In this document: positions 1 through 18,612 of the stretch, piece by piece
Position numbering within the stretch: the first letter of the stretch is position 1
Layout: each line of letters begins with the position of its first letter
Source: Panopea generosa
Taxonomy: Eukaryota > Mollusca > Bivalvia > Adapedonta > Hiatellidae
NCBI GenBank assembly: GCA_029582155.1
Contig: CM055905.1
Coordinates: forward strand, 67,787,618-67,851,617
Direction: 5' to 3'
Length of the DNA: 64,000 nucleotides
Notes under the pieces: generated by a model
What the model was told of the DNA's origin: nothing
Databases searched by the model: none
Seen by the model: the letters and a program-made list of their open reading frames with translations, nothing else
Position numbers and translations under genes: made by a program

Positions 1-42
1 CATCTAATTCATTGTTCCATATTAGACAATCATCACTGCTAT
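1..42 (-). ncRNA. Box C/D snoRNA, 28S guide family, copy 1 (partial at window edge)
   Basis: Contains the 5' half of the family described at 1,730-1,808, with the terminal stem and C box GTGATGA. The box D half with the guide lies off the left edge. Confidence 0.7.
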
Positions 43-166
43 GTAGACTTGTTACTTGGTTTCCACAGTAATACAATATCACCTCATAAAAAGCGTGTCC
101 AAAATATTCCATCATAATCAACTAATACATGGAGTGTGGCCGAGAGGGACAAGCAGAATGTACAAC

Positions 167-234
167 GCCTCAGTGAGATAGGTTCTAATCACAAATAATC
201 ATTTGTCCCTATCTATCTCTGTATCATCAATGGC
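167..234 (-). ncRNA. Box C/D snoRNA, second intron-6 family, copy 1
   Basis: Minus strand. Terminal stem GCC/GGC, C box TTGATGA (U in place of the purine), D box CTGA, and an internal stem ACAAAT/ATTTGT. Two guides are possible. The guide before box D (GAACCTATCTCA) has no rRNA match that I recognise. The inner strand ATAGGGACA pairs with 28S TGTCCCTA, about 25 nt upstream of the site of the partner family, with a mismatch further out. Confidence 0.7.
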
Positions 235-360
235 ATTTTTATTTTCTTGACGTCTATTTCAACTTTTTATACCAATATTATACATGTATTTGGTGAAGGA
301 GATGTCTTCTTTCTGAATGAGGTTCAACTCCATTTTCGACCCATGACATAAAAGGTATAT

Positions 361-1557
361 CAGGGCTCGAATTTAAGCACTCGCCACTCGCAAAATGCGA
401 GCTGTATTTTGAAAACGCGAGTTGAAATTACTTAAGCTGGCATTTTTTTGCGAGTGGATTTCAAGCTGAGAAAATTACTTATTGTATTCATTTTATTGAT
501 TTTTGAAAATAAACAAGTATTATCCTGGTAAAAATAACGAGTTCTTGTCAATTTAACCAAATTTCTTTTGCTTCTCGCGCGAAATTACCCCCTAGCAGCA
601 AGATTGTCAATGACATGTATTAAATATTTAATATGTGTAGACTGCGTCCAATTGTTTTTGATCTCAAGTTCATTCTGCAAAAAGGGAGTAAAGTTAAAAC
701 CCGTCAACAACATAATGAGTAGACTGCGTCTAGTTTGATTGATCGCGCACTCACTCTATAAAATAAAAGTAAAGTTGAAACCCGTCAAATTTATTGTTTA
801 CATATTTTGACAGCTGTTAAAGTGGCTGATAAAATAACACCTTTTTCTCCATTGTACCGACGAATGAAAGTGAGTCCCAACAAGAAAAAAAAGACAAATA
901 ATCCTTCCGTTAATACTGTAATGAAATGGGAGCGACAGCTCAATATCACACAGGGCTATAAACTTGACAATGACAAAATGGTGTGTCAATTGTAGAAACC
1001 ACCGCGATCGACAGATCATCCATAATAATTAAACTATATTACTATGATGTCACAACATTTACACATGTTAAACAATCGTCCTTGGCTAGATCTAGATCTT
1101 ATTTTAAAACGAAAGGCCATTGGCTATATTAATTCTATAAATAGAAATGTTTGTATGTCTCAATCTTAGTCTCTGTACACTTGTTATGATTTATATTTTG
1201 GTTTAGTTAAAGTGTTTATTTATGATATATCATTGTATGCATTTATTTATGGTAGTATAATAAATAACAAAGACAATTTTATTTTTTTAAATATTTTGTT
1301 TTGTAAAGTACTGCTTTGAATTGTACCTTAACATATATTATAACCTTGATACCATTGTCTATGAATAAAAAAAAGCTAATAATGCATATTAAATAACACG
1401 CAGGCTTTGAAACAATTAATTTTGGGTTTATTTAGACATTTAGGACTTCAAGTTTCTGCGAAAATTGGTTTGGCTAGCTGGTTTCAAATTTGGCCAGTTG
1501 AAATTTTAGGCACTGGCCAAAATTGCCAGTGCACAAAAAAGTTAAATTCTAGCCCTG
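361..1557. mobile_element. Non-autonomous DNA transposon with CAGGGCT ends (hAT-like)
   Basis: Terminal inverted repeats CAGGGCTCGAATTTAA and TTAAATTCTAGCCCTG bound a 1.2-kb element. The CAGGGCT start is typical of hAT-type elements. Flanks are AT-rich (GGTATAT on the left, TATATAT on the right), so the target duplication is only approximate. No transposase ORF was seen. It sits inside the SINE part of a duplicated snoRNA unit. Confidence 0.75.
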
Positions 1558-1729
1558 TATATATTCAGTTATATTGGAGGAGGAAGACCTCAGAATGAAT
1601 CTGAATAGAACCACCACCCTTCTGCAAGTAATTGGTAAACTGTCTTGTAAACGAACCGACAGCCCTCCGATCATGGGGCCGAGGCTCTGTCACCACACCA
1701 CATGCTTCACAACCAGTTTAATATTGTCA

Positions 1730-1808
1730 AGCTCAGACAGCCAAGGGAACATATATCTACGATATAATCATCTAATTCATTGTTCCATATTAGACAATCA
1801 TCACTGCT
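1730..1808 (-). ncRNA. Box C/D snoRNA with 14-nt guide to 28S rRNA, copy 2
   Basis: Minus strand, sense to RPL7A. Short terminal stem AGC/GCT, C box GTGATGA, a C'-like TAGATGA, and D box CTGA. The guide immediately above box D is the complement of ACAGCCAAGGGAAC, a stretch that I recall as invariant in eukaryotic 28S (within CCACAGCCAAGGGAACGG). The fifth base above box D is G, so the predicted 2'-O-methylation is the first C of GCC. Vertebrate RPL7A introns also carry U36 RNAs acting near this part of 28S; whether this is their orthologue could not be settled. Confidence 0.82.
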
Positions 1809-1934
1809 ATGTAGACTTGTTACTTGGTTTCCACGGTAATACAATATCACCTCATAAAAAGCGTGTCCAAAATATTCCATCATAATCAACTAATACATGG
1901 AGTGTGGCCGAGAGGGACAAGCAGAATGTACAAC

Positions 1935-2002
1935 GCCTCAGTGAGATAGGTTCTAATCACAAATAATCATTTGTCCCTATCTATCTCTGTATCATCAATG
2001 GC
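1935..2002 (-). ncRNA. Box C/D snoRNA, second intron-6 family, copy 2
   Basis: Identical to the copy at 167-234. It follows the 28S-guide snoRNA in the same duplicated unit, with about 125 bp between them. Confidence 0.7.
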
Positions 2003-2126
2003 ATTTTTATTTTCTTGACGTCTATTTCAACTTTTTATACCAATATTATACATGTATTTGGTGAAGGAGATCGTTTTCTTTTTGAATGAGATTCAACTTC
2101 ATTTTCGACCCACGACATAAAAGGTA

Positions 2127-2403
2127 TACCGTATATTCCCTTATAAACGCACCCCCCCCCCCCCCCCCCATTTTTCTGGAAAATTAAAAGATAAAACGTA
2201 CCTTTTTAAATGAAAATTCCTTTAATCCAGATACTTAAAAGCACAAACTCACATAAAAATCGTATATTAGTAATACCAATTAACACTAAACATACATTTT
2301 GATTCTATACACTTGTTAAATTTGCTTTTTTTTATCTTTAATAAACGCCCCCACCTTGTAAAATGTAACGCCCCCAGGGGCATTAATTAGGGAATATACG
2401 GTA
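2127..2403. mobile_element. MITE with TACCGTATATTCCCT ends and a poly-C tract
   Basis: The 15-bp ends TACCGTATATTCCCT and AGGGAATATACGGTA are perfect inverted repeats, flanked by TA/TATA. It contains a run of 19 C near 2,150-2,168. It is inserted at the same point of the duplicated SINE as the element at 361-1,557. Confidence 0.8.
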
Positions 2404-2571
2404 TATTCAGTTATATTGGAGGAGGAAGACCTCAGAATGAATCTGAATAGAACCAGCACCCTTCTGCAAGTAATTGGTAAACTGTCTTGTAAACGAACCG
2501 ACAGCCCTCCGATCATGGGGTCGAGGCTCTGTCACCACACCACATGCTTCACAACCAGTTTAATATTGTCA

Positions 2572-2650
2572 AGCTCAGACAGCCAAGGGAACATATATCT
2601 ACGATATAATCATCAAATTCATTGTTCCATATTAGACAATCATCACTGCT
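2572..2650 (-). ncRNA. Box C/D snoRNA with 14-nt guide to 28S rRNA, copy 3
   Basis: Differs from the copy at 1,730-1,808 by a single base. It lies in the next duplicated SINE-plus-snoRNA unit. Confidence 0.82.
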
Positions 2651-2777
2651 ATGTAGACTTGTAACTTGGTTGCCACGGTAATACAATATCACCTCATAAA
2701 AAAGCTTGTTCAAAATATTCCATCATAATCAACTAATACATGGAGTGTGGCCGAGAGGGACAAGCAGAATGTACAAC

Positions 2778-2845
2778 GCCTCAGTGAGATAGGTTCTAAT
2801 CACAAATAATCATTTGTCCCTATCTATCTCTATATCATCAATGGC
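2778..2845 (-). ncRNA. Box C/D snoRNA, second intron-6 family, copy 3
   Basis: Differs from copy 2 only next to the C box (ATATAG for ATACAG). Boxes and both guide strands are kept. Confidence 0.7.
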
Positions 2846-3176
2846 ATTTCTATTTGCTCGACATGTATTCCAACACTTTATGTCAAGAGTACACATGAAT
2901 TTGGCGAAACAAAAGAAATTATTTTCGTTTTTTAATAATATTTGACTTGATTTTCAACACATACGTGTGGCAACCATCCAGATATATTGCGGGAGGAAGA
3001 CCTCAGAATAAACCTGAATAAAACCACCATCCCCCTGCAAGTAATTGTAACTTTCTCACTTAAGTGTTTGGACCAAGTGAGGCTCGAACTTGCGACCTCA
3101 GCAGAGAGAGGTGATCTTTAGACATCATCACCTTAAAGACTTTTCAGCCATTGATGATTCCTTCTAGCAGAATAAT

Positions 3177-3462
3177 GTAAATAGTCTATGTTTAAATCAG
3201 ATCAAAACACGAGCTGGATAGGTTAATCTTGGGTGTAAATAGCCGATGCTTAAATCAGACCAAAGAATGAGCTGGATAGGTTAATCTTGGGTGTAAATAG
3301 TCGATGCTTAAATCGGGCCAAAGAATGAGCTGGATAGGTTAATCTTGGTTGTAAATAGTCGATGCTTAAATCAGACCAAAGAATGAGCTGGATAGGTTAA
3401 TCTTGGGTGTAAATAGTCGATGCTTAAATCAGACCAAAACACCAGCTGGATAGGTTAATCAG
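3177..3462. repeat. ~59-bp tandem repeat, about 5 copies
   Basis: Unit begins GTAAATAGTCGATGCTTAAA and includes GAGCTGGATAGGTTAATCTT. It contains no C box on either strand, so it is not another snoRNA array. Confidence 0.9.
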
Positions 3463-3624
3463 GTGTCTGTTTCACCAACATTTACTAAATCTTAAATTTT
3501 GACTGGGTTATTATCAATATTAATGAAACCATATGCAGTTTTACTGGAACCAGTCTGAAATCATGATCACGTGACTGCTTTTCTTACATGTAGGTTTTTA
3601 AATATATACTTTACGATATTGTAA

Positions 3625-3703
3625 AGCTCAGACAGCCAAGGGAACATATATCTACGATATAATCATCTAATTCATTGTTCCATATTAGACAATCATCACT
3701 GCT
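3625..3703 (-). ncRNA. Box C/D snoRNA with 14-nt guide to 28S rRNA, copy 4
   Basis: Boxes and guide are intact, while the surrounding unit is more diverged (the SINE part is missing upstream). Retained snoRNA sequence in a decayed unit suggests selection on the RNA. Confidence 0.82.
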
Positions 3704-3817
3704 ATATTTGGTTGCCATGGCAATACCTTTCAATATCACTTTAAAAAAACAAACCCCAAAAAACCTGTTCCAACATATTCATTCATATCTATAGAGTGTG
3801 ACCAGAGCAGTACTACA

Positions 3818-3884
3818 CCTCAGTGAGATAGATTCTAATCACAAATAATCATTTGTCCCTATCTATCTCTATATCATCAATGGC
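3818..3884 (-). ncRNA. Box C/D snoRNA, second intron-6 family, copy 4
   Basis: The D-side guide has one change (GAATCTATCTCA). The C box, D box and inner strand are kept. It pairs in position with the 28S-guide RNA at 3,625-3,703. Confidence 0.7.
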
Positions 3885-4213
3885 ATTTTTTCACTCTTTT
3901 TTAAAAATGTGGTTTAACTCCCATTTTTCACACATGACCGGTAACAATATGGCATATAAATCTGGTTATGCTGGTGAAGACACTGTCCTTCTGCAAGTAA
4001 CAGATAAATGAGACTCGATCTCACAGCCACAGCGGTGAGAGGTAAGTTTTCATTAGATGACAGCGCAATAGTCTACTCAGTCTTTGGGGACAGGAGGCAA
4101 CAGAAAAACATTTATATTCTTCCCCACGGTACTATTATATTAATATTTAGAGTATTCCATCCGACATGTTCTATTTAATCTACCAATAGTTATAAATACA
4201 TGAATGGCTGAAT

Positions 4214-4282
4214 GTCTCAGTGAGATAGATTCTAATCACATACATTCATTTGTCCCTATCTATCTCTACATCATCATTGACA
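4214..4282 (-). ncRNA. Box C/D snoRNA, second intron-6 family, copy 5
   Basis: The most diverged copy, with a better C box (ATGATGA) and a changed interior, but the same D box and the same GATAGATAGGGACA inner strand. The flanks no longer match the other units, so the conserved core stands out. Confidence 0.72.
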
Positions 4283-4675
4283 TTTAAAATCATTGTTCCA
4301 GTAAATCCATTGGGACATTCTTAAAAAATATTGTTTGCCATGCTCCTACCTACTCGCTCAAAATTGCTGCTACCCAAACTTTTTATTTGTTTTCAAAGTG
4401 TTGACCCTCCACGATTTGCACATTTTTTGTTTAAAATGAAAATACAAAATCTGGTCAAAAAATATATAGCTACCTATCTAACCAAAATGCAGAGGGCCGA
4501 AGCATAGCAAACATTTTTTTAAGGATGGCCTTAACCAGACAGACAAAAAGTACAAAGACGAGACTATGTTGTTTGCAATTATTAATTATTCCAAATCATA
4601 TCTCAATTAAGTCCAATTGTCAATTAAGTCATTTTGAATAACCAAAGAATCTTTTTTATTGTAGTTAAATATTGG

Positions 4676-4755
4676 AGCTCAGACAGCCAAGGGAACATAT
4701 TATCTATGATATAATCATCCATGTCATTGTTCCATTTTAGACAATCATCACTGCT
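4676..4755 (-). ncRNA. Box C/D snoRNA with 14-nt guide to 28S rRNA, copy 5
   Basis: The most diverged copy: the interior differs (ACATGGATGAT around C'), but C box GTGATGA, D box CTGA and the full 14-nt guide are unchanged. It lies about 420 bp downstream of RPL7A exon 6. Confidence 0.82.
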
Positions 4756-5171
4756 TTAATAACTTGAAATGTGATTTCCTTGCCAGTACCCATTCAGTAT
4801 ATTACAAGTACAGTAGAATGTCAGACTGATAAGCTTGTTCCATAGATTCAAAAGATTTTTCTCACCTTTTTATATAAGTATTTTCCTATGCCACATTGAT
4901 TCCAAGGGCAAATTAATTCTCCCAATATTAAATATACTTTAAAATTCAGAAACTTTATGGAAATTAGAGATGTTTCACATGACATTAGAACAAAGCAAAA
5001 AAAAAGTTCATGCCCTAGAACCGTCTATACATCTGACAATTTGAATTGTCATGTATACAAGTATATTAGCAAAACCACGAGGGTAATCTGGGTCCCTGCA
5101 TATAATGACCAAATAAAGAAGTTTCGACAAAATCTAAAGGCCTCAAATATTTCAAAAATGTATATATTTAC

Positions 5172-8100
5172 CTCATCCACTCGGTCATTGAAATTGGTTC
5201 TGACTGCTTCTGACACTTTGTTTAATTGATTCTTGTCCTCACTGAAATTAAAAGCATTCTTACACAAGTGTTATCATATACCACTATTACCTAGATACTA
5301 CATACAGCTGAAACTGTTGCAATATGCACTGCAGTACTGTTAATTGTTACACGTCTATCAATCCAGGGGTCGGGAGTTTGAATCCCCACCCGGCAACAGT
5401 CTCCGAGATGATTGATATACGACATTGCGTCTCATTATCATTCGTCTCTCACCGCTGATTCAAGTGGGATAAGTATCAGTTACTTGCAGAAATGGGGTGT
5501 GCTTGAGCACTGGTTAACCTTTCAGGATCCCAGGAAACAGTGTGTAGGTAAACTGATCGTCTATTAGCCTTCGATGGCATAAAAACGATGCTAAATATTC
5601 AATCAATGTTTTGAAATACAATAATGGCTGACAGGGCTCAAATTTCTTATAAAAAGATATTCCTACTTTTCCAACATTTTTAACTAAATGCTTAAAATCA
5701 AAGAAAAATAAGGCCAGTTTCTTAAATATTACTCGTCCTGACTAAATGTTCCCTCGTCACGGTGAGCAGATAAATGGAATTTTCCTGCCCCATATATTTC
5801 GCAATGAACATTGATAAATATTGTTCCAGATTATAATAAACGTATCTTAATATGAAATGTATAATAATGTTTTACATGTCTGGCCGAGACAGCAATCAAT
5901 TTTAGGCTTGATCGCTTCTGCATTGTTGAACCCACACAGATTGTTATTGCAGTGCCCCAGATTAGTATTGAACTCCTTTAATTTGTATAACTGCTAAATG
6001 TTGAGCTTAAAACCCAGGCTTTAATGTAAATATAGTTTGCAGCTTCTGGTCGACCCATAACAATCTTGTGTCGGAAACCATTTTGACCCTCAACCCACCA
6101 CTGGGAAAAAAAATTAATTCAAATGTTCTCAAGTCATTGCACATCCAGTCTGTAGCGATATTACCTACCAACCCTTAAATGGTATAGGTCGGAAATGGTA
6201 AACAAACAATTTTTTGAGTATGGCCTGATCTGCACAGGAACTGTCTACATCCCATGCTTATTTATCACCGACCTTAAATTTCAATTCTCAAATAATGCAT
6301 CTGAAGCAGTGTTAATGATATTTATTTAGCAAAATATTATATATACACATCTACTTTAGACAAACAATTTAAACAGAATCAATGTTATTGCCAGCATGTA
6401 CTGTATAGGAAGCTACAACTTCAGCTTATTACAAGCACTCAAGTAAGAACTCTTTATTACTTTAAAAAATCACAAGTAGTAATAGAAACTTTATACACTC
6501 ACGGATGAACTGTTGTTAATGCAAGACATGAAGCTGTTTTTCTATGTACAACTCGTCCCAACCTTGCTTTGCCCTTTACTATACAGTAAGGTACACCCAT
6601 CTTTCTGCATAGGGCAGGCATGAATAAAACAAGCTGAAAAAAGTTGAAAGACATCTATACACCTGAATTGAATGTTAAATGCTCCAAATGTTATTAACAT
6701 GTTTGCTCAAGATTTAAAATGCTCCAAATGTTAAATATTTACATCAGTACAAACTTGGGTTTTCTTACACAAGGTTGAGGGCCCCCTGAGGGAGAATTTT
6801 AGTATCACATCTAGTCTGTGGTTATACAGAAATTCAAAATATATGTATATAAAAGACCCATTACCCCAACCAGTTGAAGACTTCCTTATTTTCTTTAATC
6901 AGAAAATTCCCCTCTAAGAGAAATTTTCAGTAAAATTAGGGGAAAAAACTTGTATTCCAGGGCAGAGGGAAAGCACCCCCTACAAGGCCTGAAGAACAGA
7001 AGTACATGCTAATATTTATAACAAGCATTTAATGAATAAAACGAGAGACAGGACATTATATATATATATATATATATTCACATAATGCTAGATGTTGTTT
7101 TCAGCAATTTTCAGACAGGAGAACTGCCAGAAAAACATTGCAAAAAAACGTTGCTGTATTGTCTCTGCAAATTGCAATGAAGTACTGATTAACTTCAGCA
7201 AACCCAAGAGACAAAGCTGGCATACTGCCATCCTTACAGGTCAAAATTATTTTATTGCTTTCTCCCCTATCTATAATACCATTTAAAATAGGTGCCTACT
7301 CAAAATTTCGAATTTTAAAGATTGTTTTTTAAATGGGACTGAACGCCATTTCGACACATTAAAGGTTAAATATGGTATATCTAGTTTTACAGGTGGAGGA
7401 AGACCTCAGAATAAATCAGAGTAGAACCATCATTCTTCTTGGCAAATTTTCTTAAATAGAAGTTTTTGGACAGAGCTGGGCTTAATAGTGTGGTATAGAC
7501 AGACTGCCACATAGTGCCCAAACACTTGTTTTTATCCAAGCAATTAATTACCTTTATTGTATTTTTGATATTTTAAGAACTATTTCCCCTACCTACCATA
7601 TATTATCTTGCCTCACTCTATATAATAAGTTACACATTGTAATGTTGTTTATAGCAGTTTTCAGACAAACCAGATTGCCAGAAAAATATTACTTTAAAAC
7701 TTTTATATATCGCCTCTGCAAATTGCTTTGAAGTATTGAAAACTACTGCAAACCCAAGAGACGACTGGGAGGTTTTAAAGGGAATATATCAGGATTTTTC
7801 AAAATATCTTGCCTATATACTCACTGACCCCACTTGCCAAAAGACTATCTCTTTAAACATGCAAAAACAATATCTTGAAAAGAGATTTCCTTATTTGGCC
7901 TATGTACCAAGGTTAAGATTTAAATTACATATCCCACTTAAAAAGTTGCAACATGATTTCACTTTATCTGTTAGAAAGGTAATAAAAAATGGTTTCATCA
8001 TAGAAATAGTCTGAATGACACCATGAAAATCGTCAAGCAGTATTAAAGTGCCCTCTATGGGGATTTCAAGTTTACTACTCTAATAATTTAAATACTGATT

Positions 8101-11100
8101 TTGTCACGTTTTGGTGGATTTGACATATCCAAAACAATCAAGATTTTTATTTATTAATGATAATGAGATGCCTTTATAACATTTATAACATACCCCTCCC
8201 CCCACGATATACTCCCTTTAAGACTGGAGAAGGGACAATCTTCAATCAAATACCATGTTGCCGTACAGAATTTCTTTTATATGTTGTTTACAACAAATTC
8301 AAACATATCACACATGTCAGAAATACATTGTTTTAAACGTTTATGTATCGCCTCTGCAAATTGCTTTATAGTATAGATTACTACCGCAAACCCAAGAGAC
8401 GAGAGTTGACATCGTAAAATCAAATATCGTGTTCCAAATTATACCACAAATTTTACAGAACTTAATAGATCATATATTGGTTCAACTGAAAATGTATACA
8501 ACAAATAAACGACTTGCTCAGATTTAAAAAGCTCGTATTTAATTCCTCATAGTATCTCAGGAGATTTATGTTACATCATTGCAAGCCAGGTTGTATATAT
8601 GAAGAATGTAGTAACAAATTCAAGGTGAAACTTGAAATGACTTATTGTTATTTTCAATGGTATAATCCTAGCAACAAATGCTAGCATTTATTTACATGAA
8701 AAGTATTTTTGTATCGTCCCTGCAAATTGCTTTGTAGTATGATTAAACAACAGCAAACCCATAGAGACGAATACTGGGCCGTAGTACAATGGATGTAGTG
8801 ATTAACAAATTTTACAAATATATATACTCAACGGAACAGCTAACCTGCCACCCGACATTTTAGTATTTTCTCAAAAAGTATCAAATTTAGAACACATAGC
8901 CTTAGGATAACCATGATCAAATTCAAATAATGCTTCTCAATATTTTGATGAAGATATTGAAAATACAAGTGGCAGCTTAGCCGTTCCATTCAGTATATAT
9001 ATAGGCATTATATGATTTACCACGAGTCATGCTCAGACAGTCATGTATCTTCATTTTAATTGTCAGGTGAAGAAATTCTATACATCATCGCATGTTTTTA
9101 TCAGCTGTTTTTAAGGTAAAATATTGTGTCAGAGGAAAATATCTGTCTTATTGCCATTTGTCTAAGAAATGTTTTCAGTTAGTTATGAAGATTGGTGTGC
9201 TGGTTAACCTTTCAGTATCTCAAGAAAGAGTGGTTAGATTAACTGACCTAATCTTCTGTTATCCCACGAATACATAAAAATGATGCTAAATATTCAAACA
9301 TACATTAACCTACGCACTATTGTTTTTATTTTATGCTTACTTTCATTTCAGTTTAAGCTAGCCAATTATGCCTATAAACGAGTGCGCCAAAATGTGTAGA
9401 TAGACAGAAAGGAATGTAAAGCTTCAGAGATCTAGGTGGTAGAAATAATTGACATCACAACTCTCAGTCAAAATATATCATCATTGCTTTACTAACCAGT
9501 TTATTAAAATTAAGTTCCAAGAAGTTTGAGAAATACTTTTCTTGCAATTTTTTCAGTACCAAATGTACATGCTTGTTTTTTATTTGAACCGACTATATTT
9601 ACCATGCTGAACTATGTTACGGTTCATGTGAAGAAATTCTATACATCATCGCATGTTTTTATCAGCTGTATTAAAGGTAAAATATTGTGAGGAAAATATC
9701 TGTCTTATTGCCATTTGTCTAAGAAATGTTTTCAGTTAGTTATGAAGATTGGTGTGCTGGTTAACCTTTCAGTATCCCAAGAAAGAGTGGTTAGATTAAC
9801 TGACCTAATCTTCTGTTAGCCCATGAATACATAAAAATGACGCTAAATATTCAAACATACATTAACCTACGCACTATTGTTTTTATTTTATGCTTACTTT
9901 CATTTCAGTTTAAGCTAGCCAATTATGCCTATAAATGAGTGTGCCAAAATGTGTAGATAGACAGAAAGGAATGTAAAGCTTCAGAGATCTAGGTGGTAGA
10001 AATGATTGACATCACAACTCTCAGTCAAAATATATCATCATTGCTTTACTAACCAGTTTATTAAAATTAAGTTCCAAGAAGTTTGAGAAATACTTTTCTT
10101 GCAATTTTTTCAGTACCAAATGTACATGCTTGTTTTTTATTTGAACCGACTATATTTACCATGCTGAACTATGTTACGGTTCATGTGAAGAAATTCTATA
10201 CATCATCGCATGTTTTTATCAGCTGTATTAAAGGTAAAATATTGTGAGGAAAATATCTGTCTTATTGCCATTTGTCTAAGAAATGTTTTCAGTTAGTTAT
10301 GAAGATTGGTGTGCTGGTTAACCTTTCAGTATCCCAAGAAAGAGTGGTTAGATTAACTGACCTAATCTTCTGTTAGCCCATGAATACATAAAAATGACGC
10401 TAAATATTCAAACATACATTAACCTACGCACTATTGTTTTTATTTTATGCTTACTTTCATTTCAGTTTAAGCTAGCCAATTATGCCTATAAATGAGTGTG
10501 CCAAAATGTGTAGATAGACAGAAAGGAATGTAAAGCTTCAGAGATCTAGGTGGTAGAAATGATTGACATCACAACTCTCAGTCAAAATATATCATCATTG
10601 CTTTACTAACCAGTTTATTAAAATTAAGTTCCAAGAAGTTTGAGAAATACTTTTCTTGCAATTTATTTAGTACCAAATGTACATGCCTGCTTTTCATTCG
10701 AACAGACTATATTTACCATGCTGAACTATGTTATGGTTCATGTTTCCACATACCATTACTAACATGTTGTTTTTCTTTTACGGATTCCTCATCCCTTTTA
10801 AGTTCGGGGGGTCAGTAGTATATTTACCAAGGTCACCAACATAAAAAATGTTGTTGGTAACCAACTTTGGATTGACAAGGGGGTAGGCAAGTTTTTTTGT
10901 AAGAAACATATATCATTCTTTATGACCTTTTATTTTTATCAACACATTTTTAACCTGTTTTTTTCCAAGGAAACAAAACAGGAATTTACTAAGCTCATAC
11001 TGCACATAACTACATAATTTTAATAAAGGCAAAAGTAAAATGAACATGAATAACTGCACTAATTAGTTATACTAAGCCTAAATAAAAATCATCTATAGGT

Positions 11101-14100
11101 ATTTTAGATCTAATTCAAGTGTTACACAATTTCCGTTTGTAAAAATATTGTCATAAATTAATTATGTTGATGTAGAATTGTCAATAAAATGCAGTTTAAG
11201 TAAAGCTTCAGAGATCTAGGTGGTAGAAATGATTGACATCACAACGCTCAGTCAGAAGATATCATCATTGCTTTACTAACCAGCTTATAAAAAAATTAAG
11301 TTCCAAGAAGTTTGAGCCCTCTAAATAAAATCATCTATAGGAACTAGATCCAATTAAAGTTACATAATTGCTTTTACACATAAATTTGTCACAAGGCCTT
11401 AATAGTGTGGTTCCTATTACATGGAAATATACAAAATAGGGTAGGTAGGTAAATTATTTATTTTGCGTTGTTGATACTATCCGTTTTCTGCAAGTATATG
11501 TTACGTCTGTATGGACACACTGGTCATACACGATGACGAGGCAGCTCTTGCTGGAGGCAGCCATGTTGCTGCTATCTTTACTATGATCACTTCCGGCAAT
11601 CAGGTATAAAAGATTAAGGCCAACAATACAGCCAAACCATCGCCACTGGGAGGAATATTGTGGACACCGACAGATATGGCAGATTTTTTAATTTTTTTAA
11701 AAATAAATGTTTAGGGTCAGTGGGAAAACAGAACCCCACAATTATTTAATTTAGGCCTAAAATATTTATGTTGATATAGAATTGTCAATAAAATGCAGTT
11801 CAAGTAAAGCTTCAGAGATCTAGGTGGTAGAAATGATTGACATCACAACTCTCAGTCAGAAGATATCATCATTGCTTAACTTTACAATTTTAATTAGAAC
11901 TGAACACAGAAATATTCAACTACTGTATGCCTTAATGACAGAAAATAACTTCACTTTGAAATCCACATACCCGTACATAAAATATATGTATACTAAAGAC
12001 AGGACGCTAGAGGTTGCGGGTTTGATCCCAGCAATATGCAGTGTTGGTTCTACCCAGAGAGCGGACTCGAGACTGTTCATATAAGCACTGAGCTTTCTTT
12101 GCAATCGGGCTAAAATAAATTAGAATGAACTAAAACATGTGCATGATTCAGACAAGTATATATCATTCTATACCTCCAATGGGTCAACGTCATGAGCTAT
12201 GACAACCAGCTGGGCCTTCTTCTGTTCTACCAAAGTAGTGACTGTGTTGGTACCTGCTCGTACAACTGGTGGACGCTTTGTTGGTGCATCAGCTTTACCT
12301 TTAGCACGTTCCTCAGCCCGGGCCTTCAGTCTAGTCTTCTTTTGTTGCTTAGTTTCTGGCCTGTATTTGTCCAACAAACGGAAGAGCTGGGAGGCTGCAC
12401 AAAAATGTACAAATAAATTCAGCATGAAAATTATTATAAATGGTGTTCAACTTGTACAAAGATTCAAACTTTCATAGCAAAAAATAAAGCAACCAGTCTT
12501 TGAAAGATAATAAATCTATAACAATATATTAAAATTTGAAATAAAAAACTATCTTACACCAAATGACTTCCAGTTTACAACTTTTGAGCCAATTGTCACA
12601 CATGCAAGCAAACATTAATTTCATACTCTTCCAGTAGTTCCTGTTACAATTTTTGTACTAAGCCATATAAGGATTTTAACAATATACTTGTATATAAAAA
12701 GGAAAGTCAAACCTTGGGTATACCTGTTTGTCTGTCAAGTGCTTGTGTAAACTGGTTGATTGGAGGTGGAACCTTCAGTCTCTGTAACAAAACTGCCTTC
12801 TGTCTCTGCAGACGAATGTACTTGGGCCATTTTACAAACCTACTAAGATCACGCTTTGGTTGAATGTCCTGACCTAAGATAAAACAGAAATATTTTACCA
12901 TCAGCATTACTCTTCAGTCCTGAAATATAACTTGTTTTTTATGTTACTTCCAACCAACCCACAACATATAATAACTATGTTATAATATGTTGCCTTAATA
13001 TTGTCAAAAATATTAAAGAAGAATGTTCACTTCTTAGATATGACCCACGGCCTGCCATAGGTGAGGTAGCGCTCTACCACTAGACCACCATTGCGGTAAT
13101 TTCATAACGAGGAGCAAATCTGCTTAGCTGTTGTTCCTTTTTCAACAACAGTTTACAAAACCAGTCGTGATGACTGTCACTTAGTAAATTAAAATAATAA
13201 TTGTTCTGTTTTAGTATGGGTTAATGTGCTCTGCCATTGATAGTCAGTGAAATCGCAATTAACTTACCTGTTATGCATTTGCCAATAAAAAAAATCAGCA
13301 GGTGCGCAGCAAGTTCAATGGGAAAACATATATCAAGAAATAAACAACCCTGATTCAGGCATGCAGGACTGGTGCTTTGACCACGAACAGCAAAGGATTC
13401 AGAGCTATCACACTGTTACTTATCCACATGTAAGCCTTTTAAGCACAGGGGTTCGACTAATAGAAATGGTATTCCCCTAGCGCACAAATTCTTTATCTAT
13501 CTATCTATCTTTATATTTTGCCACACGCCTTCACAGGCATAATCGGGCAGCTGCGCGCCGTGTCTTATAAAAAGTTATATTAATAGAACAAGAAAAAGTA
13601 AAGCATAATAAGGATAAGGGTAAATAAACAACAAGATTTTGCAAAAGTTTACTTTCCTTTAAAGCATTGTTTTTCATTGTATATCTTTTTTCATTTTAAT
13701 GCCTTAAATGAAACATACTAAATATGATGACATGAACTGATTAATACAGGTTTTACTAGTGAAATATATTTCAATGAGTGCCTTACACAGCGCTTGAGCA
13801 TGTGTTGAAAGTGTTAACGCACTCTTTCCCCAGAACTTGCATTCCTTCCTCTAGAAAACTTAAAGAAATTTAATTAACAACATTACTAAGCTTGTGGCGT
13901 CATAATGGTAAATTAATCTACTGATACATGTTACTTTATCGCCAAACTAAAATATTAATGCAAATAACTTTACCAATGCCAAAGTTCTTTGCCCTCTTCT
14001 CGAACAGGGGATTGACAACCTTCTTCGGGTCTGCTGCCTTCTTTGCCTTCAGCGGCGCAGCTGCGACCTTCTTCTTCCCCTTCTTTTTGGGTGGCTAAAG

Positions 14101-14369
14101 AAATAGGAAATACCAATGACACGATGTACGATAATTTGAAAGTGATGACAAATATTGCGAATAATTCAACTATAATTTCAATCAATTGCAAAGTTCCCTT
14201 TCGTTTATAAACATAAAACGGTTTTAGAATAGATAGATAATCAATAATTGTATATGTTTCTAAAGAGATACACAGCATAAATTAGATGATGACTTAGATT
14301 TTTAACGGATTTCATATGTAGTCTTAAATAGTATCACTGCCTACCATGTTGATATTACAGGAAAAGGCC
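5172..14369 (-). CDS. RPL7A: Ribosomal protein L7a (eL8), six exons seen, 3' end off window
   Basis: Large-subunit ribosomal protein eL8 of the cytosolic ribosome. Exons read on the minus strand: exon 1, 5'UTR plus ATG (14,345-14,347 is the start codon, followed at once by donor GTAGGC); exon 2, 13,974-14,094 (Lys-rich tail beginning PPKKKGKKK); exon 3, 12,724-12,873 ([20 protein letters not shown]); exon 4, 12,174-12,394 ([19 protein letters not shown]); exon 5, 6,503-6,633 ([20 protein letters not shown]); exon 6, 5,172-5,241 ([20 protein letters not shown]). All junctions are GT-AG and keep phase. The C-terminal exon (usually around an RxHWGG motif) was not found in 1-5,170, so it should lie to the left. 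The gene is divergent from MED22, as SURF3 and SURF5 are in vertebrates. Introns 4 and 6 are snoRNA hosts. Confidence 0.96.
5340..5610 (+). mobile_element. tRNA-derived SINE (family B), 5' part degraded
   Basis: Reads on the plus strand from a B-box-like GAGTTTGAATCCCCACC to a 3' end GATGCTAAATATTCAATCAA. The same family is present in full at 41,010-41,308 (minus) and in part at 9,185-9,295, 22,090-22,330, 44,345-44,615 and 49,080-49,150. Confidence 0.75.
7093..7216 (-). ncRNA. H/ACA snoRNA copy 1, intron 4 of RPL7A
   Basis: Two-hairpin box H/ACA RNA in the sense orientation of the host gene. The 5' hairpin has an 8-bp lower stem (TTGTCTCT with AGAGACAA), pocket strands TGGGT and TTTGC, and an upper stem TTGC/GCAA continued by TGAAGT/ACTTCA. 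H box ACAGCA (ANANNA) lies 14 nt after the upper stem, the correct spacing. The 3' hairpin has CAGCAA/TTGCTG below and GGCAG/CTGTC above, then ACA three bases from the predicted end. The pocket fits 18S rRNA GCAAA-UU-ACCCA, with the first U as the predicted pseudouridine. The rRNA sequence is recalled from general knowledge, not aligned here. Confidence 0.85.
7643..7766 (-). ncRNA. H/ACA snoRNA copy 2, intron 4 of RPL7A
   Basis: Paralogue of the RNA at 7,093-7,216. Lower stem TCGTCTC/GAGGCGA, the same pocket strands (TGGGT, TTTGC) and the same TTGC/GCAA upper stem base; H box ATATAA again 14 nt below. The 3' hairpin apex is GGCAA/TTGTC where copy 1 has GGCAG/CTGTC, a compensatory change. ACA lies three bases from the end. 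Same predicted 18S site. Confidence 0.85.
8282..8404 (-). ncRNA. H/ACA snoRNA copy 3, intron 4 of RPL7A
   Basis: Third paralogue. Lower stem TCGTCTC/GAGGCGA, upper stem TTGC/GCAA with a GTAGTA/TACTAT extension, invariant pocket strands, H box ACATAA at 14 nt. The 3' hairpin has GACAT/ATGTT at the apex and AACAA/TTGTT at the base, followed by the ACA box. The 3' hairpin sequence differs from the other copies while its pairing is kept. Confidence 0.83.
8643..8772 (-). ncRNA. H/ACA snoRNA copy 4, intron 4 of RPL7A
   Basis: Fourth and most diverged paralogue. Lower stem TCGTCTC/GGGACGA (one G-T pair), invariant pocket strands TGGGT and TTTGC, H box ACAAAA at 14 nt. The 3' hairpin is almost entirely different from the other copies, with CTAGCA/TGCTAG at the apex and TTTTCA/TGAAAA at the base, then ACA. 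It probably keeps only the 5' hairpin function. Confidence 0.8.
9417..9491 (-). ncRNA. SNORD24: Box C/D snoRNA U24-like, copy 1
   Basis: Minus-strand box C/D RNA, sense to RPL7A. Terminal stem TAAAGC/GCTTTA, C box ATGATGA (9,478-9,484), D' CTGA, a C'-like GTGATGT, and D box CTGA (9,424-9,427). The guide before box D contains ACCACCTAGATC, one base different from the ACCACCAAGATC of human U24. It pairs with 28S GATCTTGGTGGTAG except at one position. The fifth base above box D is G, pointing to the C of GATC, the same residue as U24. Vertebrate U24 also lies in an RPL7A intron. The D' guide does not match the vertebrate one. rRNA and human snoRNA sequences are from memory. Confidence 0.85.
9974..10048 (-). 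ncRNA. SNORD24: Box C/D snoRNA U24-like, copy 2
   Basis: Identical in all boxes and guides to the copy at 9,417-9,491, apart from one base between the D guide and C'. It lies in the second unit of the ~557-bp tandem duplication. Confidence 0.85.
10531..10605 (-). ncRNA. SNORD24: Box C/D snoRNA U24-like, copy 3
   Basis: Third tandem copy, identical to copy 2 over the snoRNA. The surrounding unit diverges only in its final ~100 bases, so the duplication is recent. Confidence 0.85.
11201..11275 (-). ncRNA. SNORD24: Box C/D snoRNA U24-like, copy 4
   Basis: C box, D box, terminal stem and the U24-type guide are unchanged. The segment between C and D' differs from copies 1-3 (ATCTTCTGA before box D' in place of ATTTTGA). 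It is preceded by a segment shared with copy 5. Confidence 0.83.
11380..11760. repeat. Dispersed repeat of unknown class between U24-like copies 4 and 5
   Basis: Begins near AAGGCCTTAATAGTGTGG and ends near AATTTAGGCCTAAA. A related GGGTAGGTAGGTAAATT segment and a similar poly-A/T-flanked body occur at 19,670-19,925. It probably belongs to a MITE family; the ends are not sharply defined. Confidence 0.4.
11805..11878 (-). ncRNA. SNORD24: Box C/D snoRNA U24-like, copy 5 (nearest the 5' splice site)
   Basis: Same boxes and guide as copy 4. The terminal stem is weakened because plus-strand GCTTTA is GCTTAA here, leaving only part of the stem paired. About 295 bp downstream of exon 4. It may be less efficiently processed. 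Confidence 0.75.
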
Positions 14370-14553: not shown

Positions 14554-17138
14554 GGTCAGCTACCACCATTGCGTTTTCCATAGACTTACATTATAACGTT
14601 TGACCAAATTTTCACATTTTCTAACATTGGCGGACCAAAAAGTCCTATATCATATTAAAGTACTGTCCTAGACTCAAATAAAAATGTCCCCAAAATGGGG
14701 TCAAAAGTACCACTTTTTACCACTTTTTGCCCCCTGAAGTTGGGTACCCCCACTTTCAGCATGAAAAAAAGTAAATTTCACCAATTTTACTTTCCATGCA
14801 GTTTCCTTGATAAAATGAATCAAGACAGTCACAGAAACATAATTCTAATTTTTTATTGACACAAACATAATAAACTTATATTTTATTGTGATCATTTGCC
14901 AGTTTCACATTTTCATCCAACCACAATTAAGCTTACTATAAAAATATATGCCCTGAACATCCCTATACTTTTTTCAGCCAATCAGAGAGCTCGTCTCAAT
15001 GGTGGTAGCTGACCTAAAGGGGCATTTAATTTCGCTTTTTTATTATTCCACTGATGCAAATTCATAGAATAAATATTTCTGAACAAAATGATACCATTTT
15101 TATTTTTCTGCTACATAATTTGATGAAAATGTGGCCTTTTCCAGGCACAAAAAAGTATACATAATTTTACCAAATTCCCAATGACAAAACTGTACTTCAG
15201 TTCAAATTTACTTAGACACTTGACCTACAATATTTGATCTAATCATTCTTGTTTTTTTATATAATTATGGAAACAGGTATATAAACATGTAATGATAGCT
15301 TTGCATATCAACTTTTAAGATTCCTTTGCATAAAAAATGTGTATACATGATAATTTCATACCCCACCCACTAAAATTATATGAAAAAAGGCTAAATTGAC
15401 CATTTGCTCTAATTTCATAATAAATGTGTTGATATTTTTATAAAGAAGTTGTCGAATGCATTTGATCGAATAAAATTAACAACGGAATGATAAATTAAAC
15501 CATTTCGTAAAATTTCATTGTCGCTTCGGTTAAAGGATTACATTTGGATTACACACTTTCCGGTAGAAAGAGAGCCTTTCGGAACATCGGTTACCAAGAT
15601 AGAAGAAATGTCATATTTATTTAGTGGTTTAATATTTCTTTAATCCAGTGGAATGGGTATACATCCTTTTCTATGTCTTATATTAAAAAATATGTAAAGA
15701 TGACAGAAATTATATCAAAATCAGTCAAGCATGAAAATTCATAATTTTTAGTAGTAAATCACAATTATTACCATTTCTAGGGAATTTGGGGCACAAAACC
15801 CACAATTTTCTTGCACTACAACATTCTATTTACAAATTATCCATCAAATGTTACATTTAAGTAAAAAAAATGTCAGACAAGATAGGGCAAAATGGAAAAT
15901 ATTTCCAAAATTATATAACTCAAGTATTTCTTGAATGTAATATGTTTAGATTGTGAAGTGATTTAGCAACATTGAAGTGCAATAGATACAACCAGGCACC
16001 CATTATTGCAACTATTCAACTGGCTCTACTTATAACTGCACAATAAAAGAGGTTAAATGTGAAAAATTGCTATATAATATGGCATGGCATGCTGGTTCTG
16101 AGTGGATAAAAATGAAAAAAATGTCAAAAGTGGGCCATTTTCAGCTCAAAATCCAAATTCAGTACCTAAGTACATATATTTTGAGCTTGGAATTCAAAAT
16201 CAGTTCTTAAACCTACTATTTCATGTGTATTTTTGTTTCCCAATGCAATTAAGATCATTTCTAGTGTTTTCAATGGTTCTTGAGTGTGCGATTTCAGCGG
16301 ACAAGGCGCAAGTTATCGCGACAAACTGAACCTGGTATTTTAACCAAATTTTCCTAAAATGGCCTTATACGGTACCTTAAAATAAAATAAAACAGTATAT
16401 TTTGTCAAAATTTAACATATCTATCATCATTCCGCTGTATTTCACTTAAATGCACTTAAAATTCTGAGTAGAACATTCTGTGGGCTATTTAAAGCCATAT
16501 GGCCCTTATTTTTAATAAAAACCTCTAAAAAAAAAGAAAAAATGGCGAAAATTGATCAACCTGCGGAATTTTTTTTTATTTTATTGCCATTTCCCTACAA
16601 GCACCCCAGTTGCACTATTTACAGAAAAAAAGAAGCTAATGCGATGAAAATTTAGAAAATGTTGTCGCGGTTGTTTAGGTCAGCTACCACCATTGCGTTT
16701 TCCATAGACTTACATTATAACGTTTGACCAAATTTTCACATTTTCTAACATTGGCGGACCAAAAAGTCCTATATCATATTAAAGTACTGTCCTAGACTCA
16801 AATAAAAATGTCCCCAAAATGGGGTCAAAAGTACCACTTTTTACCACTTTTTGCCCCCTGAAGTTGGGTACCCCCACTTTCAGCATGAAAAAAAGTAAAT
16901 TTCACCAATTTTACTTTCCATGCAGTTTCCTTGATAAAATGAATTAAGACAGTCACAGAAACATAATTCTAATTTTTTATTGACACAAACATAATAAACT
17001 TATATTTTATTGTGATCATTTGCCAGTTTCACATTTTCATCCAACCACAATTAAGCTTACTATAAAAATATATGCCCTGAACATCCCTATACTTTTTTCA
17101 GCCAATCAGAGAGCTCGTCTCAATGGTGGTAGCTGACC
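14554..17138. mobile_element. Composite element with 461-bp terminal direct repeats (LTR-like)
   Basis: Two 461-bp repeats in the same orientation (14,554-15,014 and 16,678-17,138) differ at one noticed base. Each begins GGTCAGCTACCACCATTG and ends with its inverse. The pair is bounded by a 4-bp target duplication TGCT (14,550-14,553 and 17,139-17,142), while the inner edges lack one. The whole 2.6 kb therefore inserted as a unit. The 1.66-kb interior has no gag, pol or transposase ORF. A short non-autonomous LTR element is one reading; the 18-bp inverted ends are unusual for LTRs. Confidence 0.7.
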
Positions 17139-18612
17139 TGCTGACTGTTGTTTTGTTTAGACATATGTCCAAAGAATTCCCTATTGTAACTTTGTCATTT
17201 TGCAAAGTTTGTTATTTGGGTATCTTTTTTTTTTAAATTGAAACTATCTGTTGTTAAATTGTTATTTGTGCGTTTATCTGAAATATGTTAACATGTTACC
17301 GGATAATTCGTGGTTCGGATAGTTTTTTCTTCTGTTATTTCCAGCAATCACTTTCTTATTATTAAGCCGATGGAGGTGTAGTATTTTCTTATTTACTAAT
17401 GTGTGCCCCCCAACTTCATCAGTGTTAAACCCAGAATGGAATTTGAAGGGGCTTTCGGTTAATCAGTGGTGGTTTATTGGTTTTTGTATGATTTGTTGTA
17501 GTCAATACACACTTTGTATACTTCAACCAACCAAATTTATCAAGCCATTTACCTTAAAACGTTCATGACACACCAGTTTTACTGTCATTTTTTACCCCGA
17601 AGTAACAAGGAGATAATAAACGGTCATCAGATATAAATTTATAGTATATATTAGTCAACGACTTGCATGGAAGAATAGGAAACTTGCATCTCCTTACTAT
17701 ATGTTGATGAAACAGCACACAAACGATTCATAATTTGCCATCTTGATTCAGATATACAATATAGTCAATGATCTTCAATGCTTTCATTTTATTTGCAAAA
17801 CATTGAAATAAGTTCTTCTGCGTTGCAGGATTTTCACAGTTAATAATGTGTTGACCTATGAAATCGCACTTATAATAAATTAGTAACCAATTGTGGTTGA
17901 GTTCACACAGTACAAATACTCAAGTGCAACTGAATCATGAAGTTGCGATTTTGTGTGCGCCCCAGTTTATTTTGTGCCATTTGTGGTAAGTTAGCATCCA
18001 AGGCACAAAGGCAAAGCCTAGATCAAACACTGCCCCAGATTAAGTCACAAACTCTGATTGATCTGAGTGCTTAGACACATTACTAACTGATTTTGGTTTG
18101 TTATAGCGCAGGGTGGTTAGAAGGCATGGACTTTTTTAATAGTATTCTCAAAAATTGTCTTTTATAAATTTCACATCAATTTCCTTGAAATTACTAACTT
18201 AATTACTAACTTACTAACTTTACTAACTTCATGTAAATATATTTGAATAAAGATATGTAATATTTCTAAATATCATCTAGTAAATGACTTTTGACACACA
18301 TATAAATTTCACCCTGAACGATTTTCGTACCGGCAGGCACATATCCTGGCAAATGCCTTAAGTCAATGTGTACAATTTGCCAGTAAAATTAAAAAACATA
18401 CAAGTTTCACATATGCAATAAAAATTGATGGCTGAGGTGGGTATGGGCTAAATTTTTCATTCTTAATGTTTTTAATGGGGTTTAATGCCAGTCTTACAGT
18501 AATAATATTACAATTAAGAACAGGCATGTTGACCTGTAAACTGCTTTAAACATATATACTTGAGATTTTAATTGTGTTATTTTTTTCCCCTATGTCGTCT
18601 GTTAAACTAGCA
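17139..18612. other. Region upstream of MED22 without a recognised gene
   Basis: AT-rich sequence between the composite element and the MITE at 18,613. No ORF of note and no convincing splice-bounded exon was seen. A 5'UTR exon of MED22 could lie here or nearer to 14.5 kb, but cannot be recognised without transcript data. Confidence 0.5.

What the first reader, a model, noticed from the sequence alone, without database searches (positions are those of the whole stretch)
1..12173. Nineteen predicted snoRNAs of four families packed into two introns of RPL7A
Four H/ACA and fifteen box C/D RNAs, all on the host strand, occupy introns 4 and 6. Box motifs, spacing and guides are visible in every complete copy. 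Vertebrate RPL7A carries only a handful (U24 and the U36 family). Here each family was multiplied locally (4, 5, 5 and 5 copies), making this a dosage-type expansion of rRNA modification guides in a ribosomal protein gene.
Basis: partly seen in the sequence, partly recalled or inferred. Interest (0 to 1): 0.87.

Follow-up and report, generated by a model that had tools for sequence, protein, structure and literature searches.

The report
snoRNA tandem arrays in RPL7A introns
The introns of one ribosomal-protein gene in an unnamed animal carry about 27 small guide RNAs for modifying ribosomal RNA, up to 16 of them in a single intron, where most animal introns with such RNAs carry one; the guides are of known kinds, but this crowding raises the open question of how they are cut out.

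Summary
The host is an intact 266-aa RPL7A (minus strand, 7 exons). Intron 6 runs past the window and adds 3+3 copies: 27 complete in all, 16 in intron 6, 11 in intron 4. A C/D scan of the opposite strand gives 0. Functional elements hardly vary between copies while other positions do. Guides reach 28S C3848 and A3703 and 18S A668 equivalents by long pairing; the C3820 and SNORD24-like guides match poorly with the rRNA in hand. Whole-genome DNA searches matched only here. 'RPL7A expansion' is too narrow: a convergent GAS5-like cluster next door holds 21 more C/D RNAs, and both control families tested (U14; U27, sub-threshold) also show six-copy local arrays. Expression, release of interior copies and dosage are untested. 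The H/ACA 3' hairpin has no consensus support.

The parts
14345..14367 (-). RPL7A exon 1 from the 5' TOP-like CCTTTTCC to ATG (true transcript start not known)
13974..14094 (-). RPL7A exon 2
12724..12873 (-). RPL7A exon 3
12174..12394 (-). RPL7A exon 4
6503..6633 (-). RPL7A exon 5
5172..5241 (-). RPL7A exon 6 (coding part of exon 7 lies outside the window at -2470..-2366)
6634..12173 (-). RPL7A intron 4, 5540 nt, 11 complete snoRNAs and 2 degenerate ones
1..5171 (-). part of RPL7A intron 6 inside the window (whole intron 7537 nt, to -2365, 16 C/D snoRNAs)
7090..7215 (-). H/ACA-like copy a
   Evidence: 5' hairpin with pocket, H box ACAGCA 14 nt from it, ACA; 3' hairpin from single-sequence fold only
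7640..7765 (-). H/ACA-like copy b
   Evidence: H box ATATAA
8279..8403 (-). H/ACA-like copy c
   Evidence: H box ACATAA
8643..8771 (-). H/ACA-like copy d
   Evidence: H box ACAAAA
8512..8585 (-). SNORD36 copy that keeps the 18S guide (A668 equivalent)
   Evidence: 62 bits (cut-off 30); 14 bp
9027..9094 (-). SNORD36 copy that keeps the 28S guide (A3703 equivalent)
   Evidence: 36.8 bits; 12 bp
9603..9655 (-). degenerate SNORD36 copy, 28S guide kept, box D lost
10160..10212 (-). degenerate SNORD36 copy, 28S guide kept, box D lost
9418..9490 (-). SNORD24-like copy 1
   Evidence: 32.2 bits (cut-off 41)
9975..10047 (-). SNORD24-like copy 2
   Evidence: 31.4 bits
10532..10604 (-). SNORD24-like copy 3
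   Evidence: 31.4 bits
11202..11274 (-). SNORD24-like copy 4
   Evidence: 25.6 bits
11806..11878 (-). SNORD24-like copy 5
   Evidence: 27.2 bits
164..236 (-). SNORD74-like copy
   Evidence: 28.1 bits (cut-off 41)
1932..2004 (-). SNORD74-like copy
   Evidence: 28.1 bits
2775..2847 (-). SNORD74-like copy
   Evidence: 26.8 bits
3814..3886 (-). SNORD74-like copy (not listed as SNORD74 by Rfam)
4211..4283 (-). SNORD74-like copy, most diverged of the RPL7A ones
   Evidence: 24.8 bits
1..41 (-). SNORD53-like copy cut by the window start (continues to -39)
1729..1809 (-). SNORD53-like copy
   Evidence: 31.2 bits (cut-off 46)
2571..2651 (-). SNORD53-like copy
   Evidence: 32.2 bits
3624..3704 (-). SNORD53-like copy
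   Evidence: 31.2 bits
4675..4756 (-). SNORD53-like copy
   Evidence: 30.7 bits

Best explanation
Introns 4 and 6 of an intact RPL7A gene are arrays of intron-encoded snoRNA genes. Shown here by sequence: 27 complete copies of five families (four C/D, one H/ACA-like), all in host orientation; the guide of the SNORD53-like family and those of the two SNORD36 copies pair well with conserved modification sites of 28S and 18S. Indicated by shared spacers: many copies arose by tandem duplication of units (three 557-bp units with SNORD24-like plus SNORD36; SNORD74/SNORD53-like units 566 to 1768 bp apart). Inferred: they are co-transcribed with RPL7A, assembled into snoRNPs and released from the excised introns, the interior ones by endonuclease cuts in addition to exonuclease trimming. 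Inferred: several copies matter together (dosage, or making up for inefficient release), within a genome-wide habit of local tandem snoRNA amplification.
For: RPL7A intact: 266 aa, 7 exons, GT-AG, 436.5 bits to solved L7a. Rfam: SNORD36 62 and 36.8 bits, above cut-off; SNORD24, SNORD74, SNORD53/92 below cut-off. Density: 33 strict C/D hits against 1-4 expected; 0 on the strands opposite to the two clusters, 2 in the other 49 kb of the window. Guides: SNORD53-like D guide pairs 15 nt (one G.U) with N+5 on C3848; SNORD36 guides 12 and 14 bp on the A3703 and 18S A668 equivalents; 0, 1 and 1 of 2000 shuffled guides do as well. Constraint: variable columns in functional elements 0/23, 1/25, 0/31, 0/24 (SNORD74-, SNORD53-, SNORD24-, H/ACA-like) against 13/51, 13/58, 5/42, 67/105 elsewhere; Fisher p 0.0046, 0.034, 0.057, 1.3e-9; I named the elements with the alignments in view. 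H/ACA-like: H box 14 nt from the pocket in 4 of 4; 8 pairs with two-sided changes against 3.6 in shuffles, 2 of 500. Genome habit: U14 and U27 arrays.
Against: No RNA data. Three of four C/D families score below Rfam cut-offs. The SNORD74-like D' guide has an 8-nt run (420 of 2000 shuffles reach it) and the SNORD24-like D guide 7 (1516 of 2000); the other guides tested, SNORD74-like D and the D' guides of SNORD53- and SNORD24-like, have 8, 6 and 6 nt (505, 1932 and 1963 of 2000). The animal's intact 28S was not found in the assembly. RNAalifold gives no consensus 3' hairpin for the H/ACA-like copies, and copy b folds no better than 20 of 200 shuffles. Redundant copies need not all be used; two SNORD36 copies have decayed. 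Only imperfect inverted repeats, no RNase III-type hairpins, were seen in the window parts searched.
Confidence: 0.77

Rival explanations
1. Neutral amplification: one or two copies per family do the work; the others are recent tandem copies or passengers kept alike by gene conversion and lost at random (constrained drift).
For: Recent units are about 90-100% identical in the flanks too, so they say nothing about selection; two SNORD36 copies have already lost box D; U14 and U27 show the same kind of arrays; drift of snoRNA copy number is proposed in PMC3511168 (passages read).
Against: C/D copies with mostly unalignable flanks still have bodies 86-100% identical, and functional elements are spared. 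Weakened because unrelated flanks may mark duplication breakpoints rather than age, and because all copies of one genome do not replace a comparison between species.
Confidence: 0.4
2. The introns are not fully cut up: trimming stops at the outermost snoRNPs and leaves long RNAs with many internal snoRNPs (multi-headed sno-lncRNAs).
For: Two snoRNAs in one intron give sno-lncRNAs in mammals, also at RPL13A (PMC11028025 and PMC4234469, passages read); 16 snoRNAs share one 7537-nt intron; no clear processing hairpins in the parts searched.
Against: No RNA data; unannotated exons could split the intron; several snoRNAs in one intron occur elsewhere (PMC2656528, passages read).
Confidence: 0.12
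3. Sequence repeats that only look like snoRNAs.
For: Short stretches beside the SNORD53-like copies (about 1560-1647) recur elsewhere in the window like a dispersed repeat.
Against: DNA searches with the snoRNA bodies matched only this locus in 1.47 Gb; C/D boxes lie on the host strand only; three guides fit rRNA sites at box+5.
Confidence: 0.03
4. Assembly artefact: haplotypes or repeat units multiplied in assembly.
For: Some units are nearly identical, such as the 557-bp ones (98%).
Against: Copies differ by substitutions, indels and flanking insertions, and more diverged copies exist in each family.
Confidence: 0.04

Closest known systems
Vertebrate RPL7A with SNORD24 and SNORD36 (chicken: introns 1, 3, 4; PMC2653536 section 5 read)
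   Same: Same host gene; SNORD24- and SNORD36-type guides; SNORD36 copies split between the 18S and the 28S guide, as that paper says of human U36A and U36C
   Different: Here 5 SNORD24-like copies plus SNORD74- and SNORD53-like families, which the chicken C/D table places in other hosts; 11 and 16 snoRNAs in one intron. Whether chicken RPL7A has H/ACA RNAs I did not check
GAS5 / gas5-like snoRNA host (PMC2653536, passages read, calls it a hotspot of snoRNA expansion)
   Same: SNORD79 and SNORD74-, SNORD81-like RNAs occur in the adjacent convergent cluster; SNORD74-like RNAs are shared between that cluster and RPL7A
   Different: In chicken the U74 guide sits in the gas5-like gene; here eight of the nine copies found are in RPL7A
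snoRNA clusters in single introns of plants and Plasmodium (PMC2656528, passages read)
   Same: Several snoRNAs within one intron
   Different: Here an animal, with repeated copies of the same few guides
Mammalian SNORD115/116 tandem arrays and sno-lncRNAs (PMC11028025, PMC4234469, passages read)
   Same: Local tandem amplification of C/D RNAs; two snoRNAs in one intron can leave a sno-lncRNA
   Different: Those arrays are imprinted and, as I recall, noncoding hosts with orphan guides; here a ribosomal-protein gene with rRNA guides

Membership tests
box C/D snoRNA | box C (RUGAUGA-like) and box D (CUGA), 35-90 nt between them, with terminal stem | tested here: met
   for SNORD74-, SNORD24-like and SNORD36; SNORD53-like copies have the boxes but too short a stem for the scan; the two degenerate SNORD36 copies fail box D
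box C/D snoRNA | guide of 10 or more nt with N+5 on an rRNA nucleotide | tested here: inconclusive
   Met for SNORD53-like and both SNORD36 copies; 8-nt run only for SNORD74-like and a mismatch in SNORD24-like; own intact 28S not found
box C/D snoRNA | stable RNA bound by NOP58/fibrillarin | not testable with these tools
   no RNA data
SNORD36 (RF00049) | Rfam gathering score 30 | tested here: met
   62 and 36.8 bits; the two degenerate copies 25.1 bits each, not met
SNORD24 (RF00069) | Rfam gathering score 41 | tested here: not met
   25.6-32.2 bits in 5 of 5 copies; filed only as SNORD24-like
SNORD74 (RF00284) | Rfam gathering score 41 | tested here: not met
   24.8-28.1 bits in the 7 of 8 RPL7A copies listed; filed only as SNORD74-like; N+5 falls on C3820
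SNORD53/92 (RF00325) | Rfam gathering score 46 | tested here: not met
   26.9-32.2 bits in the 7 of 8 copies listed (the copy across the window edge was not scanned whole); filed only as SNORD53-like; N+5 falls on C3848
box H/ACA snoRNA | 5' hairpin with pocket and H box ANANNA about 14 nt from it | tested here: met
   4 of 4 copies; consensus fold of the 5' hairpin
box H/ACA snoRNA | 3' hairpin followed by ACA three nt from the end | tested here: inconclusive
   ACA conserved in 4 of 4, but the 3' end was set by me three nt after it; single-sequence folds give a 3' hairpin, RNAalifold gives none; cells pair 72-79% in the structure I drew from copy a
box H/ACA snoRNA | bipartite pocket complementary to rRNA | tested here: inconclusive
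   5' pocket UGGGU/UUUGC fits 18S GCAAA-UU-ACCCA (18S letters recalled); the decayed rDNA copy reads ACAAATTACCCA

The most novel reading that the evidence does not exclude
One intron of a ribosomal-protein gene yields a single long RNA studded with up to 16 C/D snoRNPs, a multi-headed sno-lncRNA or a polycistronic snoRNA precursor that needs its own endonuclease. The mostly alternating SNORD74/SNORD53-like units would then deliver, at fixed ratio to RPL7A, guides for two 28S nucleotides 28 nt apart.
Probability: 0.12. Interest if true: 0.8.

Novelty: new variant of a known kind. Interest (0 to 1): 0.5.

Why it matters
Animal snoRNAs follow predominantly a one-per-intron rule (PMC11028025, passages read). 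An excised intron is trimmed from its ends up to the protected snoRNPs, so by inference interior snoRNAs need another way out. An RP-gene intron with 16 C/D snoRNAs, in a genome where two other guide families are arrayed too, makes the question testable: how are interior snoRNAs released, and does copy number set rRNA methylation? It also shows, within one gene, the split of a two-guide snoRNA (SNORD36) into two single-guide copies while two-guide copies survive next door.

Tried and rejected
Rfam alone: only 2 window hits pass the cut-offs, so most family names rest on sub-threshold hits, boxes and guides. Intact own 28S: not found (the best 5.8S hit leads to decayed rDNA; exact 28-nt pattern 0 matches; a 261-nt query hit three fragments). 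Exact 30-nt 28S pattern in viral contigs: 0. Processing hairpins: no inverted pair of 30 nt or more in 1-13000; five imperfect ones of 16-27 nt in 1-5171 and 6634-12173; the part of intron 6 left of the window was not searched. An alignment with one unoriented locus was useless and was dropped. Body-versus-flank identity is weaker than it looks, because lost flank homology may mark duplication breakpoints. The NCBIfam hit of the host protein is below that model's cut-off (59.2 of 134.6 bits); the identification rests. Naming the species and cross-species comparison: no animal genomes are held. Literature: ten listings, of which held no paper; I saw in them no report of such an RPL7A or of so many snoRNAs in one animal intron, which is not proof of absence. 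Passages of PMC12508059 and PMC12309372 added nothing on this point. Two Drosophila snoRNA papers cited elsewhere are not held.


Full report
What was given. Positions left of the window are given as negative window coordinates.

The host gene. Joining seven exons with GT-AG borders gives a 266-aa protein that matches solved 60S L7a chains over its whole length (best 436.5 bits). Exon 1 ends with ATG after CCTTTTCC, a 5' TOP-like start. Intron 4 is 5540 nt (12173-6634). Intron 6 is 7537 nt (5171 to -2365), so it extends past the window; the coding part of exon 7 is at -2366..-2470.

Inventory. Rfam at cut-off gives two SNORD36 genes. At relaxed E-value it gives SNORD24-, SNORD74- and SNORD53/92-like hits, all below their cut-offs. 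A nhmmer search with one copy of each family gives in RPL7A: SNORD74-like 8, SNORD53-like 8, SNORD24-like 5, H/ACA-like 4, SNORD36 2 complete and 2 truncated. That is 27 complete copies: 16 in intron 6 and 11 in intron 4. Of these, 20 lie whole inside the window and one SNORD53-like copy crosses its edge.

More than chance. A strict C/D scan of 111,999 bases found 33 hits; ten Markov-1 simulations gave 1-4 each. Eighteen hits fall in the neighbouring cluster, 14 in RPL7A and one elsewhere. The scan does not catch the SNORD53-like copies, whose terminal stem is short. With looser rules the strand opposite to RPL7A and the strand opposite to the neighbouring cluster gave 0 hits each, and the rest of the window 2.

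H/ACA-like RNAs. All four copies have a 5' hairpin with the same pocket and an ANANNA H box exactly 14 nt from it; the consensus fold supports this hairpin. Folded singly, a 3' hairpin and a conserved ACA follow; I set the 3' end three nt after ACA. RNAalifold finds no consensus 3' hairpin. With the structure that I drew from copy a, 8 pairs have changes on both sides against 3.6 in shuffles (2 of 500 reach it), while the 3' helices pair in only 72-79% of cells. Over slightly different stretches, the folding z-scores of the four copies are -2.5, -1.6, -2.4 and -3.4. The 5' pocket fits 18S GCAAA-UU-ACCCA; the 18S letters are recalled, and the only 18S copy in hand, a decayed one, reads ACAAATTACCCA.

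C/D guides. Shuffle control: 0, 1 and 1 of 2000 shuffled guides match as long as the SNORD53-like guide and the two SNORD36 guides. The SNORD74-like D' guide (8 nt, 420 of 2000) and the SNORD24-like D guide (7 nt, 1516 of 2000) are not significant against the sequences in hand, nor are the other three guides tested (505, 1932, 1963 of 2000). The SNORD24-like guide differs from the Rfam consensus by an A-to-U change in its middle, which leaves a U.U mismatch if the 28S reads AGATCTTGG; the decayed copy also has AGATCTT.

Constraint. Across the copies, functional columns vary in 0 of 23 (SNORD74-like, 9 sequences with the neighbouring copy), 1 of 25 (SNORD53-like, 8), 0 of 31 (SNORD24-like, 5) and 0 of 24 (H/ACA-like, 4), against 13 of 51, 13 of 58, 5 of 42 and 67 of 105 other columns; I chose the elements with the alignments in view. 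The one functional change is a G-to-A at the purine of box C. C/D bodies are 86-100% alike also where 80-nt flanks are mostly near the level of unrelated sequence (0.31 on average; the lowest flanks 0.09, some one-sided values up to 0.71). H/ACA-like bodies are 56-73% alike with flanks at 21-45%. Lost flanks can also mark duplication borders. In the SNORD74-like terminal stem one pair changes from C-G to U-A on both sides in 2 of 9 sequences.

Duplication history. Three 557-bp units, 98% alike, carry SNORD24-like RNAs; the first also holds the intact 28S-guide SNORD36, the other two its degenerate copies. SNORD74- and SNORD53-like copies mostly alternate; five units share 95-99% identical spacers, while the outer copies have unrelated flanks. 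SNORD36 shows a split of functions: the two neighbouring copies keep both guides, RPL7A copy 8585 keeps the 18S guide, and 9094 keeps the 28S guide.

Where else. A DNA search of the whole genome with SNORD74-like plus SNORD53-like sequence gave 17 matches, all here: 16 in RPL7A and 1 next door. A query with SNORD24-like, H/ACA-like and SNORD36 sequence gave 12, all here: 11 in RPL7A and 1 next door. The second missed one neighbouring SNORD36 copy and the two truncated ones, and the tool scores only its best candidates, so diverged copies can escape.

Neighbour. Between the 3' end of RPL7A and an HSP70/BiP-like gene on the minus strand (L008 215-2244, named by eye from its ORFs) lies a plus-strand cluster of 21 C/D RNAs in 8 families at -24409..-10108. 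SNORD36 (2) and SNORD79 (2 of 3) pass Rfam's cut-offs; SNORD81-like hits do not, and the SNORD74-like copy was found with the RPL7A copies as query. The set recalls vertebrate GAS5. Among ORFs of at least 70-75 aa I recognised no other coding gene there (by eye); no transcript is known.

Generality. Two further families were chosen as controls. U14 has 9 matches (8 above cut-off), 6 of them within 4.2 kb on one strand; 120 of 21,014 candidates were scored. For U27 the genome search gave 3 neighbouring matches and a local scan 6 on one strand within 3.7 kb, all below cut-off. Local arrays are therefore not special to RPL7A. Whether those arrays lie in single introns was not settled.

Mechanism. 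Reported for intronic snoRNAs: splicing, debranching, and trimming up to the snoRNP-protected ends; two snoRNAs in one intron can leave a sno-lncRNA (PMC11028025, PMC4234469, passages read). With 16 in one intron, interior copies by inference need endonuclease cuts, hidden exons, or stay joined. Only imperfect inverted repeats were found in the window parts. I favour release by endonuclease plus trimming, with copies kept partly by dosage; drift is a serious rival.

Verdict. Real by sequence, larger than reported, made of known RNA types in an unusual arrangement: a new variant of a known kind.

Noticed in passing
-24409..-10108 (L008, L007; + strand): Convergent GAS5-like cluster of 21 C/D RNAs in 8 families, including a SNORD74-like copy and two-guide SNORD36 copies; next to a BiP-like gene on the minus strand.
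   Followed up: partly
L038 2604-6811 (G000:C8:74035104-74039311): Six U14 (SNORD14) copies on one strand; bodies identical except one base in the first copy.
   Followed up: partly
L041 2821-6545 (G000:C8): Six SNORD27-like hits on one strand within 3.7 kb, all below Rfam's cut-off.
   Followed up: partly
3176-3523: 58-bp tandem repeat inside RPL7A intron 6.
   Followed up: no
about 14555-15015 and 16680-17140: Two near-identical stretches with inverted ends (CAGCTACCACCATTG ... CAATGGTGGTAGCTG), likely a short transposable element; read by eye.
   Followed up: no
L013 (G000:C4) and L034 (G000:C18): Decayed rDNA copy, and a 28S fragment with a 5-base gap just before TAACTATGACTCTCTTAAGGTAGCC, a stretch that I recall as the target of R2-type elements.
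   Followed up: no
164-4283, SNORD74-like copies: Internal helix GAGAUAG/CUAUCUC between the D' guide side and box D, invariant in the 9 copies; the Rfam SNORD74 consensus could form a different-sequence helix at a similar place (by eye).
   Followed up: partly
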